Shown: in pieces, positions 821-29,124 of the stretch
How the letters are laid out: each line of letters opens with the position of its first letter
How positions within the stretch are numbered: position 1 is the stretch's first letter
Assembly: GCF_027594145.1 (NCBI RefSeq)
Contig: NZ_JAQFFK010000003.1
Coordinates: 62,001-126,000, forward strand
Source: Methanococcoides alaskense
GTDB lineage: Archaea; Halobacteriota; Methanosarcinia; Methanosarcinales; Methanosarcinaceae
Reading direction: 5' to 3'
Length of the DNA stretch: 64,000 nt
Position numbers and translations under genes: made by a program
The notes under the pieces: generated by a model
What the model saw: the letters and a program-made list of their open reading frames with translations, nothing else
Told to the model about the DNA's origin: nothing
The model's database searches: none

Positions 821-1774
821 GTGACAAAGCCAAGAATATTTGTAAGTTCTACATATTATGATTTAAAACACATTAGAAGTAACCTTGAAACTTTCATTGA
901 CAATATGGGGTATGACTCCATATTATTTGAGAAGGGAGATATTCCATATAAATCCACAGCCCCACTCGATATATCATGCTATGATGAAATTGACAGTTGC
1001 CATATGTTTATTTTAATTATAGGTGGACGGTATGGAAGCCCATCATCTGAACTTCGAGAAAAAAAAGACGAAGATGAGATTTGCACAGAATATAATTCAG
1101 TCACCATTGAGGAATATCGAGTCGCTCGAGAGACCGATATACCCATATTTATTTTTGTTGAAAAAAACGTATATTCAGAATACCGCACTTACAAGGAAAA
1201 TAGAGATGCAGAATTTGAAATCAAATATGCTTATGTAGACAATATAAATGTTTTCAAATTACTTGATGAAATTAATCAGCAAGACCGAAATAATGTAATG
1301 CGTGACTTTGATAAATTTGAAGATATATCAAATTGGTTAAGGGATCAATGGGCAGGGTTATTTGCAGACTATCTTATGAATCAAAGGAATGAAAAAATTG
1401 TAAAAGGCATGTCTACAAAGATAGAAGAATTGTCTCAACTAACAGCAACTTTGAGAGAATATACTGAATCCATCATGAGAAAAGTTCAACCGGATGACTA
1501 TGAAGAAATTATAAACAATGAAAAAGAAAAGAATATTTTACTTCAAAAACGCCTTTTTAAGTCAGAACATGTCATCAAGTATATTATGAGAGAGGATAAA
1601 ACTTTAAAAGTAGATACTCTCTATTCTGTGTTCAAAAAAGTAAAATCATATGAAGATTTTATTGAAAATATTGGTATTAATGATAAAATAAAAGATGAGT
1701 TACTAAATAATATGAGTGTAAAGATTGATTATGAGCAATTACGTTTACGTATAGGATTACGAGAAGATATGTAA
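821..1774 (+). CDS. DUF4062 domain protein, putative defence or signalling component
   Basis: The start is GTG at 821, supported by AGGTG at 811-815. The first 100 or so residues match the DUF4062 pattern: KPRIFVSST near the N-terminus, then IDSCHMFILIIGGRYGS, then SVTIEEYRVA. DUF4062 is a small alpha/beta domain that often heads multi-domain proteins such as STAND NTPases and is found near defence genes. Here it is followed only by about 200 mostly helical, charged residues with coiled-coil character (roughly 190-260), with no NTPase or nuclease motif that I can see. The 239-base gap to the preceding gene argues against tight co-transcription, but both genes share the AT-rich composition and orientation. 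The molecular function is unknown. Confidence 0.75.
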   Translation: MTKPRIFVSSTYYDLKHIRSNLETFIDNMGYDSILFEKGDIPYKSTAPLDISCYDEIDSCHMFILIIGGRYGSPSSELREKKDEDEICTEYNSVTIEEYRVARETDIPIFIFVEKNVYSEYRTYKENRDAEFEIKYAYVDNINVFKLLDEINQQDRNNVMRDFDKFEDISNWLRDQWAGLFADYLMNQRNEKIVKGMSTKIEELSQLTATLREYTESIMRKVQPDDYEEIINNEKEKNILLQKRLFKSEHVIKYIMREDKTLKVDTLYSVFKKVKSYEDFIENIGINDKIKDELLNNMSVKIDYEQLRLRIGLREDM

Positions 1775-2710: not shown

Positions 2711-5700
2711 ATGAAATATATCGGGGTTACAAAAAAAGGATTCTGTTTGTTGGTCTTGCTATCGTGTATTCTGCTGGCAGGATGTATCGGGCAGGACGAG
2801 AGACAAGCTCAAACTTCTTCGAATGAAGCTCTCACCTATGATGAGGGTGGAACTTATTCCGAAGAGGACGAATATCTGGTGCTTGTACCGAAATCGCTGT
2901 TCTCAGGCGGGGAAAGTTCTGTAACGATGTCTGCTTTCCTTGATGATGAACCGGTCAGCAGGGGTATCGAATATACCCTTACCAGTGCATCAGGGGAGAT
3001 CACCCCACTGGTAAAGGCGGCTACGTCTGAATCTGGTAACAATGTAGCGAAATTCGATGTACCGGATGTCGAAGAGGGAAGCTATACACTGACCGCAACA
3101 CCCTCCGGTGCTGAAAAGGGTTTTACTACAACCGTTAAGGTGGTGCAGAATAATCCTATCTTCATCGAAACTGACAAACCTATATACAAACCCGGGCAGA
3201 CCATCCATGTACGTCTTCTCAGCCTGAACAACAACCTTGTTCCTGTCGTTCAGAACACCACCGTTGAGATAGCTGATGCAAAGGGAGTGAAGATCTTCAA
3301 GGATGATCTTGTCACCAACGAGTATGGGGTTGCTTTCTTTGATCTTCCGCTTGCCTCTGAGCTGAACCTTGGAACATGGAAGGTGAAAGTGACATCAGGA
3401 AGTTCAATGTCCGAAGTGGATATCAGGGTGGAAAAATATGTACTTCCCAAGTTCGACCTCGAAACTTCCACTGAGAAAAGCTGGTTCCTTGCCGATGAAC
3501 CTATTACAGGCACGGTCTCTGCTAACTATTTTTTCGGAAAGGTCGTTGAAGGTACTGTTGAGGTAAAGGCTTCCAGATACGTAGGTGTCTGGGAAGAATA
3601 CGCAACTTCCACTGCTCCTCTTAAAGACGGAAATGTAGAATTTGCACTTCCTGCTGTTGGATATGTGGCAGGCACCTTTGGGGCCGGAGGGCAGGGTAGT
3701 GTCATGCTGAATGTGACCGTGACCGACACCGGAGGGAATAGTGAAGAAACTACCGAACTGCTCACCATAGCAGAGCATCCGTTCATAATGCAAATGATCC
3801 CGGAATCCAATTCCATCAAACCGGGAATGCCTCTTTTGGTCCTTCTTGTAACAAAGGACCCCGGAGGAGAACCCCTTGAAAAAGAGGTTACCCTAGTTTC
3901 CAATTTCAGGGATGACAGTTACAACTATGACGAGAGCAAAAATACCTACACAACAGAGAACGGCATTGCTCTGGTCACACTGGAGATACCCGAGGATGCT
4001 GTGAGTGTCGAACTGCATGCTGTCTCAGAAGAAGTTGAAGTTACCAGTACATTGAACTCGGTCTATTCCCCAAGTGCCAGTTTTCTGCACTTAAGCCAGG
4101 TAAGTGAAGGCATACCGGAAGTCGGGGATACCATCTCGCTCAAGGTCTATTCAACTAACGCGGGAACTGTATTCTACGATGTTTTCGCAAACGGTAGAAC
4201 AGTTTATTCTGCAACAAGTGATGAGCCGCAGATAAACATCCCGGTCACACCACAGATGAGCCCGTCAGCGAAGGTCGTTGCATACCTGATAAATCCGAAC
4301 AATGAGGTTTCCGCCGACAGCCTGCCCTTCGATGTCAAGTTCAGCACTCAGGTGGACTTCTCCACAGGATTCGATAAGGAAACTGTGGCACCGGGTGACG
4401 CTGTCTCGGTCGAGCTGGATGCAGGCACCAAGTCCATGATAGGACTTTCCATTGTGGACGAATCCGTATATGCATTGAGCGAGGGCAGACTGAATCTGAA
4501 ACAGGTGTTCGATGAGCTTGAAATTCGCTTTATGGAACCTCAGGTCGAAGCGCATCCACAATATTTTGGATATCAAACAACTGCTTATGATGTTCTTGAT
4601 GAGGCCGGAATGATAGTATTGGCATCCGGCAGTCTTGAGATACCAAGGTCAGAAGTGGATGGGGGTATGGGCGAACCTCGGTTTGTGGCATTTATGGCAA
4701 ACATAGATGGTATGGAAGTTGTAGATGAAGCTGTAATGGAGATGCCCATGGAAGATGCTGCAATAGATGACAAAGCAGGTTCAGGGGAGCAGCTTGCAGA
4801 AGTGGAGAGAGTACGCCAGTTCTTCCCTGAAACATGGATCTGGATGCCTGATATTCTGACCAATCATGACGGATTGGCAACCCTTGACCTGAATGCGCCT
4901 GATTCCATCACCAAGTGGAGACTTCATGCGGTGTCCTCAGGTCCGGAAGGCATCGGAATATCCGAAGCAGGACTTACGGTGTTCCAGAATTTCTTTATCG
5001 ATCCTGATCTGCCTTATGCTGTTATTCGTGGCGAGGAGTTCCCGGTTCAGGTGCATGTGTACAACTATCTCGACAAGCCTCAGAATGTGAAGCTGACACT
5101 TTCCGGTGCAGAATGGTTCGAGCTGGTGGGAGATGATGTTGTTGAAGTGAGCGTGGATGCCAATAGTGTGACCCATGTAAGTTTCACCATTCGTCCCACC
5201 AAGGTCGGGGTGCAGACAGTTGAACTGACAGGACAGACCACTGAGAAAGCGGATGCTATCCGTAAGACGATCATTGTTGAGGCGGAAGGGGTCACTAGAG
5301 AGATAGTGGATAATGGTATCCTTAAGAACGGTACCGTTGAGCTGGATGCAACACTGCCTGATGCCATAGTACCGGATTCCGAAAAAGTGATACTGAGCTT
5401 TACGCCAAGCATCGTAGCCCAGACGATCAGCGGAGTCGATGATCTGTTGGGTATGCCTTACGGATGTGGTGAACAGAACATGATGTTGTTCTCCACCGAT
5501 GTTGAGGTGCTGCGTTATCTCAAGGCCACCGATCAGCAGAATCCCGAGGTACAGGCCAAGGCATTGACGTTCATCACAACAGGATACCAGAGGGAGCTCA
5601 CTTTTATGCATGCCGATGGCTCTTTCTCTGCTTTTGGAGAGAGTGATGGTGAAGGCAGTCTGTGGCTTACTTCCTTTGTACTTTCCCAGTTCAGTGGTGC

Positions 5701-6925
5701 CAGAGACCTGACGACCATCGATGAGAATGTTGTAAGGGAAGCAGCGCAGTGGATAGGTTCACACCAGAAAGAGGACGGTTCATGGGAGGCAGTCGGCTTC
5801 GTTATTCATCAGGATATGATGGGAGGTGTGAGCGGCACTTATGCCCTTACGGCCTATGTGACACTGGCACTCGATGAATATGGCTATGCTGCTCCTATAG
5901 TTATGGAAAATGCCCGCAGCTATCTGGAAGCAGAACTTGATAAGCAGGATGATCCATACGCCCTTGCCATAGGTACTCTTGCTCTTCAAAAGCTTGAAAG
6001 TGACAGGGTAGATGAGGCAACGGAAAGACTTCTCGAGCTGGCAAAAGAGGACGAAAACGGCGTGTATTGGGGATACGATGATGTCATGCCTGAGCCTTAC
6101 GAGTTTGGTGGTTATGGTTTCCATCCTATCTCAAGCAAGAATGTTGAAACCACAGCCTATGCCACACTTGCGTTGATCGAAACGAATGACCCAAAGGCAA
6201 GCTCATCATTGAAATGGATAGCAGCCCAGCGTAATTCCAATGGCGGTTTTTCAAGCACGCAGGATACTGTCATGGCTTTCAGGGCATTGATGACGGCGGC
6301 AGCGGTTGCAGGAAGGGATGTGGATGCCACTGTTTCTGTCAGAGGGGATGGAGTGGAACTCAAGGGCCTTAGGATAACTTCCGAGAACTACGATGTTGTG
6401 AACATCATTGAAGTTCCGGAAGGCGTTGAAGTTCTCGAGATGGAACTTTCCGGGACCGGAGAGCTGAACTATCAGGTTGTCAGAAGGTTCAATGTGATCC
6501 TGCCTGAGATCATCGAGCATGAACAGATCGAGCTTGATGTTGAGTACGATTCAACAGATGTGGAAGTCGATGACGTGGTAAAGGTTGATGTTCGCCTGAA
6601 ATACAATGGTATGCCTGGTATCAGAGGAGTCGTTGAGTCCAGTGGAATGATGATAGTGGATATTGCAGTACCCACAGGTTTCACTCCGGTAGGGTCCAGT
6701 CTCGAAGCCCTTAAGGAAGACGGCACCATCACCCGCTACGAAATAGCCGGTCGCAAGGTGATCTTTTACATCGATGAGATGATGCCCGGAGAGGAAATGG
6801 AGTTCTCGTTGAATATGAGGGCAATGTTCCCGGTAAAGGCGATGGTGCAGGAGAGCAGTGCGTATTCATACTATAGTCCAGAGGTGAAGGCGGAAGCGAA
6901 GGGTATGAACGTGACTGTAACGTGA
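2711..6925 (+). CDS. Alpha-2-macroglobulin/complement-type thioester lipoprotein
   Basis: I chose ATG 2711 because AGGTAG precedes it and the product begins with a clean lipoprotein signal ending in LLAGC; an in-frame TTG at 2690 is the alternative. The 1404-residue protein carries landmarks of the animal A2M/complement family in order: DKPIYKPGQT (from residue 155), VEKYVLPKFDLE, a Met- and acid-rich stretch resembling a bait region (about 640-700), VRQFFPETWIW (701-711), PYGVIRGE-like PYAVIRGEEF, the thioester GCGEQ (Cys919, Gln922), VIHQDMMGG with His1033, GGFSSTQDTV, and a C-terminal receptor-binding-like domain. In complement C3 the thioester binds targets covalently and the equivalent His speeds transfer to hydroxyls. 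The protein is probably anchored outside the cell membrane, under the S-layer. No penicillin-binding-protein partner, usual for bacterial A2M, lies next to it. Confidence 0.92.
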   Translation: MKYIGVTKKGFCLLVLLSCILLAGCIGQDERQAQTSSNEALTYDEGGTYSEEDEYLVLVPKSLFSGGESSVTMSAFLDDEPVSRGIEYTLTSASGEITPLVKAATSESGNNVAKFDVPDVEEGSYTLTATPSGAEKGFTTTVKVVQNNPIFIETDKPIYKPGQTIHVRLLSLNNNLVPVVQNTTVEIADAKGVKIFKDDLVTNEYGVAFFDLPLASELNLGTWKVKVTSGSSMSEVDIRVEKYVLPKFDLETSTEKSWFLADEPITGTVSANYFFGKVVEGTVEVKASRYVGVWEEYATSTAPLKDGNVEFALPAVGYVAGTFGAGGQGSVMLNVTVTDTGGNSEETTELLTIAEHPFIMQMIPESNSIKPGMPLLVLLVTKDPGGEPLEKEVTLVSNFRDDSYNYDESKNTYTTENGIALVTLEIPEDAVSVELHAVSEEVEVTSTLNSVYSPSASFLHLSQVSEGIPEVGDTISLKVYSTNAGTVFYDVFANGRTVYSATSDEPQINIPVTPQMSPSAKVVAYLINPNNEVSADSLPFDVKFSTQVDFSTGFDKETVAPGDAVSVELDAGTKSMIGLSIVDESVYALSEGRLNLKQVFDELEIRFMEPQVEAHPQYFGYQTTAYDVLDEAGMIVLASGSLEIPRSEVDGGMGEPRFVAFMANIDGMEVVDEAVMEMPMEDAAIDDKAGSGEQLAEVERVRQFFPETWIWMPDILTNHDGLATLDLNAPDSITKWRLHAVSSGPEGIGISEAGLTVFQNFFIDPDLPYAVIRGEEFPVQVHVYNYLDKPQNVKLTLSGAEWFELVGDDVVEVSVDANSVTHVSFTIRPTKVGVQTVELTGQTTEKADAIRKTIIVEAEGVTREIVDNGILKNGTVELDATLPDAIVPDSEKVILSFTPSIVAQTISGVDDLLGMPYGCGEQNMMLFSTDVEVLRYLKATDQQNPEVQAKALTFITTGYQRELTFMHADGSFSAFGESDGEGSLWLTSFVLSQFSGARDLTTIDENVVREAAQWIGSHQKEDGSWEAVGFVIHQDMMGGVSGTYALTAYVTLALDEYGYAAPIVMENARSYLEAELDKQDDPYALAIGTLALQKLESDRVDEATERLLELAKEDENGVYWGYDDVMPEPYEFGGYGFHPISSKNVETTAYATLALIETNDPKASSSLKWIAAQRNSNGGFSSTQDTVMAFRALMTAAAVAGRDVDATVSVRGDGVELKGLRITSENYDVVNIIEVPEGVEVLEMELSGTGELNYQVVRRFNVILPEIIEHEQIELDVEYDSTDVEVDDVVKVDVRLKYNGMPGIRGVVESSGMMIVDIAVPTGFTPVGSSLEALKEDGTITRYEIAGRKVIFYIDEMMPGEEMEFSLNMRAMFPVKAMVQESSAYSYYSPEVKAEAKGMNVTVT

Positions 6926-27102: not shown

Positions 27103-29124
27103 ATGAAAAGCTTTATAGCAATCTTAATGGCTGCTTTAATGGTACTGAGCTTTGTTTCAGTAGCAAGCGCAGCAGATACAATTGAGATCCGAAGTCCGGT
27201 TTTCAGCGGTGACAATTTAACTGACCTCATCGCTAACGACGGAAACTCAATTGACTTTAATGACTTCGCAGCATTCTACTATGACATTGATGATGGTGTC
27301 GGATCCGAATCCATCACATTCACTGGTACTGCTGACGTTATTGCAGAAGATGACCTTGTCTACACCGCAGAGATCCAGCAGGTAGGATACACCTACGAAG
27401 GATGGGACAACAATGGTGAGACATTTGACAAGATCGGTTTCCTCGCAGAGGAATACGTTCCAATAGACCAGGATCCTGGAATCCTTTCCAAGTTGATCCT
27501 CGACTCCGATGACAAGTACACCCTTCGTACAGGTCAGACACTCGAACTCGGTGAAGGTTTCGCAATCACACCAAAGCAGATCGATGTTGACGGTAACAAG
27601 GTATGGCTCGAGCTTACAAAGGACGGCAACTTCATTGATGATGAAGTATTCAACACTGTAGACAACACTGACGACTCCGCATGGGAATATGACACCACCA
27701 TTGGTGGCGAAGAAGATATCATTATGCTGAGAGTACACATCAACGAAGTATTCCAGGGTCAGGTTGACAGTCTTGCTATCATCGAGGGTCTCTGGTTGAT
27801 CAGCGATGAAGTAACAGAAATCGACACAAGTGACTCATTCGGTGACCTCGAAGTAACAACTATTACAACAGGTGCAAGCGGAATGATCGAAATGAAGAAC
27901 GTCGACAATGACATCACTCTTAACGATGATTCACTTATTTCAATCTCTGATGGTATTTCCATACAGACTGCAGATCCTGCAACAGGTACAGATGCTCTTA
28001 GATTCTTCTTCGTAAAGCAGATCACAGAGCCAGGTACCTATGAGATCAGAGGCACTGTTGCTTCACCAACAACTTCAGGTGACGTATTCACATGGGACGA
28101 AGCAAGCTTTGCTGGTTTCTACTATGACATCGATGACGATATTGCATCAGAAGAGCTGACTGTAACCGTTACTGGCGAAAACAGAACCATTGCAGAGGAT
28201 GCTCTTGTATACACTGCAGAGATTCAGCAGGTCGGTTTCACCTATGAAGGATGGGACACTGCTACAGTCAACACCTATGACAAGATCGGTTTCCTCGCAG
28301 AGGAATACGTTCCAATAGACCAGGATCCTGGAATCCTTTCCAAGTTGATCCTCGACTCCGATGACAAGTACACCCTACGTACCGGTCAGACACTCGAACT
28401 CGGTGAAGGTTTCGCAATCACACCAAAGCAGATCGATGTTGACGGTAACAAGGTATGGCTCGAGCTTTCAAAAGACGGCGAATTCATTGATGATGAAGTA
28501 TTCAACACTGTAGACAACACTGACGACTCCGCATGGGAATATGACACCACCATTGGTGGCGAAGATGATATCGTTATGCTGAGAGTACACATCAACGAAG
28601 TATTCCAGGGTCAGGTTGACAGTCTTGCTATCATCGAGGGTCTTTGGTTGATCAGCGATGAAGTAATAGAAATCGACACAAGTGATGAATTTGGTGACCT
28701 CGAAGTAAACTCTATCACAACAGGTCCAAGCGGAACCATCACAATGGATAACGTTGACAATGAGATCTCCTTGAACAAGGACTCAACAATCGAGATCGCA
28801 GAAGGCCTCAACTTCAGAGTTGCTGACAGTGAGAACGATGATGTAAGATTCTTCTTGTTCACTGAACAGACAATCGAAGGCGCAGTTGACGAGACAGTTG
28901 ACGAGACAGTTGACGAGACAGTTGACGAGACAGTTGACGAGACAGTTGACGAGACAGTTGACGAGACAGTTAACGAGACCGTTAACGAGACAGTTGACGA
29001 AACCGTTAACGAGACAACTGACGAAGAAGCTCCTGAAGAGACTCCAGATGAGACTCCAGGCTTTGAAGCAGTATTCGCAATTGCAGGTCTCCTTGCAGTA
29101 GCATACTTCGTAAGAAGGAACTAA
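27103..29124 (+). CDS. S-layer protein with duplicated S-layer-family domain and PGF-CTERM anchor
   Basis: The 673-residue exported protein begins with a signal peptide (cleavage after ASA, about residue 24), has two tandem copies of the Methanosarcinales S-layer duplication domain (DUF1608), then a low-complexity stalk of four-residue VDET/VNET units, then PGF followed by a hydrophobic segment and RRN, the PGF-CTERM archaeosortase signal. It is the likely main S-layer lattice protein. The VNET units and other N-x-T sites could carry N-glycans. The protein is very acidic, fitting a marine or saline habitat. GGAGG at 27092-27096 sets the start. Confidence 0.95.
   Translation: MKSFIAILMAALMVLSFVSVASAADTIEIRSPVFSGDNLTDLIANDGNSIDFNDFAAFYYDIDDGVGSESITFTGTADVIAEDDLVYTAEIQQVGYTYEGWDNNGETFDKIGFLAEEYVPIDQDPGILSKLILDSDDKYTLRTGQTLELGEGFAITPKQIDVDGNKVWLELTKDGNFIDDEVFNTVDNTDDSAWEYDTTIGGEEDIIMLRVHINEVFQGQVDSLAIIEGLWLISDEVTEIDTSDSFGDLEVTTITTGASGMIEMKNVDNDITLNDDSLISISDGISIQTADPATGTDALRFFFVKQITEPGTYEIRGTVASPTTSGDVFTWDEASFAGFYYDIDDDIASEELTVTVTGENRTIAEDALVYTAEIQQVGFTYEGWDTATVNTYDKIGFLAEEYVPIDQDPGILSKLILDSDDKYTLRTGQTLELGEGFAITPKQIDVDGNKVWLELSKDGEFIDDEVFNTVDNTDDSAWEYDTTIGGEDDIVMLRVHINEVFQGQVDSLAIIEGLWLISDEVIEIDTSDEFGDLEVNSITTGPSGTITMDNVDNEISLNKDSTIEIAEGLNFRVADSENDDVRFFLFTEQTIEGAVDETVDETVDETVDETVDETVDETVDETVNETVNETVDETVNETTDEEAPEETPDETPGFEAVFAIAGLLAVAYFVRRN
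27427..27833 (+). repeat. Near-identical internal DNA repeat in the S-layer gene, copy 1
   Basis: This block matches 28279-28685 (offset 852 bases) with ten mismatches that I can count and no gaps. Flanking parts of the two domains are much more diverged, which points to recent gene conversion between domains. Confidence 0.85.
28279..28685 (+). repeat. Near-identical internal DNA repeat in the S-layer gene, copy 2
   Basis: Partner of 27427-27833. The ten differences include both silent and replacement changes (for example Lys-Asp-Gly-Asn against Lys-Asp-Gly-Glu). Confidence 0.85.
28885..29016 (+). repeat. Tandem 12-base repeat encoding the S-layer stalk
   Basis: Eleven consecutive 12-base units are seen. 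The first seven are identical GTTGACGAGACA (28885-28968); the last four vary (GTTAACGAGACC and similar). They encode V-D-E-T or V-N-E-T. Perfect in-frame repeats can change number by slippage, so stalk length may vary among strains. Confidence 0.9.

What the first reader, a model, noticed from the sequence alone, without database searches (positions are those of the whole stretch)
2711..6925. Complement/A2M-type thioester protein with C3-like catalytic histidine in a methanogen
The protein keeps animal-family landmarks over its whole length (DKPIYKPGQT, VEKYVLPKF, VRQFFPETWIW, GCGEQN, GGFSSTQDTV, a C-terminal receptor-binding-like domain). Most notably, His1033 in VIHQDMMGG lies 114 residues after the thioester Cys919 and resembles the VIHQEMIGG of complement C3, where this His directs attachment to hydroxyls. 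Bacterial A2Ms are usually larger and paired with PBP1C. A surface-anchored, covalent trap in an archaeon suggests defence against proteases, predators or phage, or binding to sugars.
Basis: partly seen in the sequence, partly recalled or inferred. Interest (0 to 1): 0.85.

Follow-up and report, generated by a model that had tools for sequence, protein, structure and literature searches.

The report
Animal-type thioester protein in methanogens
A marine methanogen and many of its relatives carry a probably lipid-anchored protein built like the human protease traps CD109 and A2ML1, with the same reactive cysteine and helper histidine found in complement C3, and animal complement proteins may branch from inside this microbial family.

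Summary
Window 2711-6925 (+) encodes a 1404-residue thioester protein with the animal domain set (MG2, MG3, MG4, bait domain, A2M, TED, receptor-binding domain) and the thioester motif C919-Q922. H1033 lies 114 residues later, at the place of the C3, CD109 and A2ML1 histidine. The host genus is Methanococcoides (inferred).

The histidine does not mark this protein out: 83 of 87 distinct CGEQ-type TED rows have it, archaeal, bacterial and animal. The protein has a fast-changing bait segment and no anaphylatoxin match, so it looks most like CD109/A2ML1, not C3. A lipobox (36 of 41 archaeal homologues) suggests membrane anchoring. No partner gene recurs across phyla; PbpC lies beside 1 of 80 loci.

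It is not the E. coli type: it lacks the bacterial-only domains and falls in a separate, well supported clade with short TEPs of several bacterial phyla and animals. Animals nest beside Chloroflexota/Actinomycetota (AU p 0.07 and 0.038 against one prokaryotic clade), which would run against the published animal-to-bacteria direction. Archaeal A2M homologues are already in print (PMC8416519).

Seen in passing: planctomycete A2Ms with in-frame TGA exactly at the thioester cysteine, probably selenocysteine.

The parts
2711..6925 (+). complete coding sequence of the thioester protein, 1404 aa plus stop (an upstream TTG at 2690 is also in frame)
   Evidence: homologues
2711..2785 (+). signal peptide with lipobox L-A-G-C25 (residues 1-25)
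   Evidence: lipobox in 36 of 41 archaeal homologues (window included); Cys only at 12, 19, 25 and 919
3158..3430 (+). MG2 domain (residues 150-240)
   Evidence: PF01835 4.7e-20
3434..3604 (+). MG3 domain (residues 242-298)
   Evidence: PF17791 2.8e-10
3809..4033 (+). MG4 domain (residues 367-441)
   Evidence: PF17789 9e-8
4097..4477 (+). A2M bait-region domain, conserved part (residues 463-589)
   Evidence: PF07703 2.5e-23
4628..4801 (+). putative protease bait: hypervariable, predicted disordered segment (residues 640-697)
   Evidence: 55% identity in 641-680 against the 94%-identical relative; pLDDT under 50 at window residues 588-622, 633-643 and 648-694
4832..5101 (+). A2M domain PF00207 with FPETW motif (residues 708-797)
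   Evidence: 3.3e-27
5414..6292 (+). thioester domain, helical toroid (residues 902-1194)
   Evidence: 1.3e-78; TM 0.80 to CD109, 0.76/0.81 to C3d
5465..5476 (+). thioester motif C919-G-E-Q922
   Evidence: invariant
5807..5809 (+). His1033, the place of the acyl-transfer histidine of C3, CD109 and A2ML1
6635..6895 (+). receptor-binding / MG8 domain (residues 1309-1395)
   Evidence: PF07677 1.3e-16

Best explanation
It is a lipid-anchored, cell-surface alpha-macroglobulin of the animal (CD109/A2ML1) type, a covalent protease trap. Proposed working: an attacking protease cuts the flexible bait segment (about residues 640-697); the protein changes shape and exposes the C919-Q922 thioester; His1033 attacks it to give an acyl-imidazole; this is passed to hydroxyls or amines on the protease (or a nearby glycan), tethering and shielding it at the cell surface. 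Shown here by sequence: domain set, thioester motif, invariant histidine, hypervariable and predicted disordered bait position, lipobox, no partner gene seen to recur across phyla. Inferred: thioester formation, the acyl-imidazole step, protease inhibition, and protection of surface (S-layer) proteins from proteases of neighbouring microbes.
For: Animal domain set without bacterial-only domains. CD109 and A2ML1 are ranks 1 and 2 of Foldseek; the E. coli protein is rank 43. The TED alone matches A2M and CD109 at TM about 0.8 and C3d at 0.76/0.81. C919, E921, Q922 and H1033 are invariant in the 38 rows (the window and 37 loci I chose from the 80); H in 83 of 87 distinct CGEQ rows, 44 of 45 archaeal (the 45th is truncated). 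A2ML1 has a histidine here; it is reported to react with amines and hydroxyls through a histidine acyl-imidazole and to inhibit proteases as a monomer (PMC9156758, passages). The bait segment is 0.55 identical where the whole protein is 94% identical, with omega 0.16-0.66 in 10 pairs of one subclade against 0.07-0.10 elsewhere. Its only cysteines outside the signal peptide are lipobox C25 and C919.
Against: No experiment. Bait omega never exceeds 1; in the second Methanococcoides subclade it is only 0.03-0.14 (higher than the rest in 10 of 15 pairs), so an arms race is not shown. The full AF2 model has pTM 0.55 and TM about 0.45 to native structures, so domain packing and burial of the thioester were not reproduced. 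The gene is in 69 of 237 genomes of its class, so it is not needed by methanogens in general.
Confidence: 0.62

Rival explanations
1. A complement- or TEP1-like surface tag: the thioester is used mainly to bind hydroxyls on intruding cells, phage or glycans (opsonin or adhesin), with protease cleavage only as a trigger.
For: The histidine that gives C3 hydroxyl reactivity is invariant and near-universal; TED fold matches C3d with TM 0.76/0.81; archaeal A2M homologues have been linked to microbial conflict loci (PMC8416519, passages).
Against: A2ML1, a protease inhibitor, has the same histidine (PMC9156758 passages); no anaphylatoxin match and no cysteine between 25 and 919; no neighbour seen to recur across phyla but an ABC-transporter-like family; no PADLOC match.
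Confidence: 0.2
2. A housekeeping envelope or adhesion protein in which the thioester makes permanent cross-links to S-layer or extracellular polysaccharide, not a defence.
For: Syntenic placement near mutS in 14 archaeal loci and ordinary neighbours; strong constraint outside the bait.
Against: The hypervariable disordered segment at the bait position has no obvious use in a structural cross-linker.
Confidence: 0.12
3. An ordinary E. coli-type (Type I) bacterial A2M recently acquired.
For: PMC8416519 files a Methanolobus homologue as closely related to bacterial A2M, cites E. coli A2M work there, and infers transfer from bacteria (passage).
Against: Starred separate clade (99/97 TED with E. 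coli A2M in the tree; 100/100 wide region against four CFEQ rows), 17% TED identity to E. coli A2M, none of bMG1, bMG3, bMG5, bMG6, bMG10. Transfer from, or to, short-type bacteria is not excluded.
Confidence: 0.03

Closest known systems
Human CD109
   Same: Top structural match (8s3o); GCGEQNM; histidine with the same 114 spacing (VIHSELQGG); 36% TED identity; membrane-anchored (recalled: GPI)
   Different: Archaeal lipobox anchor in place of GPI; almost no cysteines; animal rows sit in a different subclade
Human A2ML1
   Same: Monomeric protease inhibitor (PMC9156758 passages) with histidine (LLHTAMKGG), 35% TED identity
   Different: Animal protein of the skin and other tissues; the bait was not compared
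Complement C3
   Same: TED fold and histidine motif VIHQEMIGG; 36% TED identity
   Different: C3 has anaphylatoxin and C345C domains (recalled) and convertase activation; no such domain matched here
E. coli / Salmonella Type I A2M (YfhM)
   Same: Superfamily, CxEQ motif, bait domain
   Different: 1653 aa with bMG1, bMG3, bMG5, bMG6, bMG10; CLEQ motif; no histidine aligned at the H1033 column; beside pbpC (E. coli sequence only)
Archaeal A2M homologues of PMC8416519 (e.g. Methanolobus psychrophilus WP_015053894.1)
   Same: Probably the same archaeal gene family (not checked by sequence)
   Different: In the passages seen, that paper treats the Methanomicrobia ones as close to bacterial A2M and acquired by HGT and says nothing of the histidine or the animal-type placement

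Membership tests
A2M/TEP (alpha-macroglobulin) superfamily | MG domains, bait domain, TED and receptor-binding domain in order | tested here: met
A2M/TEP (alpha-macroglobulin) superfamily | CxEQ thioester motif | tested here: met
   C919-G-E-Q922, invariant
A2M/TEP (alpha-macroglobulin) superfamily | a formed, reactive thioester | not testable with these tools
   needs protein and methylamine or mass spectrometry
Animal-type (CGEQ) TEP clade | clade membership apart from CFEQ/CLEQ types | tested here: met
   99/97, 100/100
Animal-type (CGEQ) TEP clade | histidine at the C3 place | tested here: met
   family-wide
Animal-type (CGEQ) TEP clade | histidine next to the thioester in space | not testable with these tools
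   no model coordinates are given
CD109/A2ML1-like protease inhibitor | variable, flexible bait between bait domain and FPETW | tested here: met
CD109/A2ML1-like protease inhibitor | traps proteases covalently | not testable with these tools
   no experiment
Complement C3/C4/C5 | cysteine-rich anaphylatoxin domain | tested here: not met
   no such match in Pfam at E 0.01; no cysteine between 25 and 919
Bacterial Type I A2M (E. coli type) | bMG1, bMG3, bMG5, bMG6, bMG10 domains | tested here: not met
   present in YfhM, absent in window
Bacterial Type I A2M (E. coli type) | gene beside pbpC | tested here: not met
   none among the six neighbours scanned; PbpC hit in 1 of 80 loci, positive control found

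The most novel reading that the evidence does not exclude
A third kind of prokaryotic A2M exists: a lipid-anchored or secreted, His-assisted, CD109-like covalent trap, established in Methanosarcinales and present in several bacterial phyla. Animal A2M, CD109 and complement C3 descend from a member of this family close to the Chloroflexota/Actinomycetota branch, so complement chemistry was invented by microbes and passed to animals, not the reverse.
Probability: 0.35. Interest if true: 0.88.

Novelty: new variant of a known kind. Interest (0 to 1): 0.6.

Why it matters
The passages read divide bacterial A2Ms into Type I (thioester, E. coli and Salmonella) and Type II (PMC5764988) and say that the two with known structures are thought to have come from animals (PMC9156758). 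A wide prokaryotic group with the animal domain plan and the complement histidine gives a test of where complement chemistry came from, and a cysteine-poor protein with relatives in isolated methanogens in which bait, thioester and histidine function can be studied.

Tried and rejected
Rejected: E. coli-type A2M. Rejected: the histidine as a special feature of this archaeon. Rejected: a conserved partner. Of the window's neighbours (first 16 kb), mutS recurs in 14 and mutL in 11 of 28 named archaeal loci. Clustering the neighbours of the 80 named loci, the 14 largest families (6-17 loci each) are all archaeal but one (an ABC-transporter-like family, 13 archaeal and 4 bacterial loci); those printed look like ordinary genes by eye (flavodoxin-like, permease, MFS, cobalt-transport, chaperonin-like) and were not run through Pfam. 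Only 52 of 80 loci have 3 kb upstream and 46 have 3 kb downstream. Not shown: positive selection on the bait. Not resolved: the order of archaeal, planctomycete and Chloroflexota branches, and direction of transfer. The nesting of animals is 92/88 on TED (not starred) and 100/99 on the wide region, but the AU test against a single prokaryotic clade gives p 0.0696 with CD109 and 0.038 without CD109 and L175; E. coli A2M is a very long branch. Row choice was mine: 116 TED rows came from 122 entries with a TED match (window included) plus E. coli and 5 animal fragments, after dropping 11 TGA loci without C.EQ and one fragment; one search used 65 of the 116, 44 rows, 42 rows, with near-copies and fragments left out. 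Repeat loci L001-L025, L106-L133 and L176-L196 were left out. Only vertebrate animals were in the trees; insect TEP1, cnidarian and sponge TEPs were not. His1033 to thioester distance: no coordinates are given by the folding tool, so the geometry rests on alignment and fold similarity. Papers: Budd et al. 2004 is known only from its title in a reference list and recall; it is not held. Selenocysteine in A2M: searches (22 papers, 12 listed by title; none; 7 listed; no mention in PMC13188914) showed no report of it.
Full report
Observation. The ORF at 2690/2711-6925 (+) is real and complete. Pfam gives MG2, MG3, MG4, A2M_BRD, A2M, TED_complement and A2M_recep above their cut-offs. The best solved relatives are human A2M, A2ML1 and CD109. 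The only cysteines are at 12 and 19 (signal peptide), 25 (lipobox) and 919 (thioester). His1033 is 114 residues after Cys919, as in CD109 and A2ML1; C3 has 116.

Host and distribution. The window is part of a 1.97 Mb, 77% complete assembly. Its genus is Methanococcoides by inference: a same-genus genome has a TEP contig of the same length (7203 bases) as the named Methanococcoides seepicolus contig. In one search, 22 of 40 genomes have a match, the window's own among them (21 of 39 others), including all 10 others of the same genus. In one search, 69 of 237 genomes of the class (own included) have it at E 1e-20, in 15 of 39 genera. In one search (TED family, phylum sample) 25 of 294 genomes match. 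The named scan found 194 encoding stretches and kept the best 80: Methanosarcinaceae, ANME-2 and Methanoperedens, one Altiarchaeales, Planctomycetota, Omnitrophota, Hydrogenedentota, Chloroflexota and Actinomycetota.

Histidine. In the TED alignment of 116 rows the residue at H1033 is His in 98. With duplicates removed, CGEQ-type rows have His in 83 of 87: 44 of 45 archaeal (one truncated), 36 of 37 bacterial and 3 of 5 animal; C3, CD109 and A2ML1 have His, human A2M Asn and frog A2M Met. The 19 non-CGEQ rows have His in 5. It is therefore a feature of the whole group. A2ML1 is reported to react with amines and hydroxyls through a histidine acyl-imidazole (PMC9156758, passages), so the histidine does not separate a C3-like tag from a protease trap.

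Phylogeny. On TED (65 rows) the CGEQ type, with 5 animals, 11 Methanosarcinales, 1 Altiarchaeales and bacteria, is one starred clade (99/97) apart from CFEQ-type planctomycete proteins and E. coli A2M. The archaeal rows group together (96/89, with Altiarchaeales inside), next to Planctomycetota/Omnitrophota (93/91). Animals (96/97) lie with Chloroflexota/Actinomycetota and two other archaea (92/88, not starred). On the wider region (44 rows) the CGEQ clade is 100/100 and animals lie within the Chloroflexota/Actinomycetota group (with one archaeal row) at 100/99. Holding all prokaryotic CGEQ rows as one clade costs 10.7 log units, p-AU 0.0696; without CD109 and L175 it costs 12.3, p-AU 0.038. 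The archaeal clade itself has 88/92 and only 48/91. Nesting of animals is thus favoured, not proven. PMC9156758 says that the two bacterial structures known are thought to come from animals (passage); those are the E. coli and Salmonella type, which is not this clade.

Structure. AF2 of residues 241-1404 has mean pLDDT 76.5, pTM 0.55, with most of the bait segment under pLDDT 50. Foldseek ranks native CD109 first (2.3e-69), A2ML1 second, TEP1 and A2M among the next, native E. coli A2M 43rd (2.4e-47); TM-scores of at most 0.47 show that domain packing was not reproduced. The TED alone (pLDDT 79.6, pTM 0.81) matches activated A2M first, active CD109 with TM 0.80 and rmsd 2.2, and C3d 6rmt with TM 0.76/0.81. 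H1033 (model residue 155) falls just before a short helix. The distance to the thioester was not measured.

Bait and anchor. Mean pairwise identity falls to 0.23-0.36 in the 40-residue windows from 621 to 700, against 0.40-0.82 over the rest except the first 60 residues; identity is 0.55 between the window and its 94% relative at 641-680. Omega in the bait is 0.16-0.66 in one Methanococcoides subclade (rest 0.07-0.10) and 0.03-0.14 in the other (rest 0.03-0.08). A lipobox was found in 36 of 41 archaeal and 6 of 34 bacterial homologues whose TED starts at residue 800 or later of the frame.

Context. Upstream is an FMN reductase; downstream an uncharacterised gene and a BCCT transporter on the other strand, then mutS and mutL (mutL named from its translation by eye). 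Of 28 named archaeal loci searched with the window's neighbours, 14 hold mutS and 11 mutL, downstream on the same strand in the clustering. That clustering of neighbours in all 80 named loci showed no family shared by archaea and bacteria among the 14 largest except an ABC-transporter-like one. A PbpC relative occurs in 1 of 80 loci (L070), with the E. coli locus as positive control. PADLOC gave no match for the protein at E 0.01.

Literature. PMC8416519 (passages) reported archaeal A2M homologues and named a Methanolobus psychrophilus protein as close to bacterial A2M and probably acquired by HGT. The histidine, the animal-type placement and the separation from E. coli-type A2M were not met in the passages read or in the listings.

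Aside on selenocysteine. In the TED search of the phylum of a Phycisphaerales genome (26 of 119 genomes matched), 14 of 48 matches hold one in-frame stop, always TGA. In all 11 loci inspected (10 of those 14, plus one from the genome of a Chloroflexota bin) the TGA replaces the thioester cysteine, as G-TGA-F/M-E-Q. All 9 genomes with such TGA matches (8 of them inspected) have a SelB match over the cut-off, but so do 15 of 18 others searched, so SelB does not discriminate. The 54 bases after the TGA fold more strongly than in 18 cysteine versions (mean z -2.19 against -0.08, mononucleotide shuffles; Mann-Whitney p 0.0013), though 2 of the 11 have z above 0. Sec and Cys forms are interleaved on a quick tree. 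A selenoester in place of the thioester is the likely reading; no SECIS model was run.

Noticed in passing
L145, L150, L152, L153, L154, L155, L158, L160, L171, L173, L174: A2M/TED genes of Planctomycetota (and one from a Chloroflexota bin's genome) with in-frame TGA exactly at the thioester cysteine (G-TGA-x-E-Q), with SECIS-like folding just downstream in most and SelB in every such genome: probable selenocysteine, hence a natural selenoester alpha-macroglobulin. Not met in the paper searches.
   Followed up: partly
window 821-1774 and 25-582: A DUF4062 protein preceded by a small protein with GHG and QLHCNH motifs (caspase-like dyad by eye, no Pfam match); DUF4062 proteins are often near conflict genes (recalled). 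PADLOC gave only a weak partial match for the DUF4062 protein.
   Followed up: partly
L175 and L197 (other archaea of the same phylum): CGEQ-type TEPs that branch with Chloroflexota/Actinomycetota, apart from the Methanosarcinales group, suggesting a separate transfer.
   Followed up: partly
L019, L020 (archaea of the same order): Homologues with 10-11 cysteines, against 4 in the window and 1-5 in the other eight compared, so disulfides may stabilise some members.
   Followed up: no
L061 (Methanolobus sp. Soudan_28): The TEP match is longer than its longest open frame; G130, probably the same gene, reads in two frames: a frameshift in the assembly or a decaying copy.
   Followed up: no
window 27103-29124: Large surface protein with two near-identical repeated domains and a C-terminal hydrophobic anchor, resembling the methanosarcinal S-layer tile protein (by eye; no search run).
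   Followed up: no
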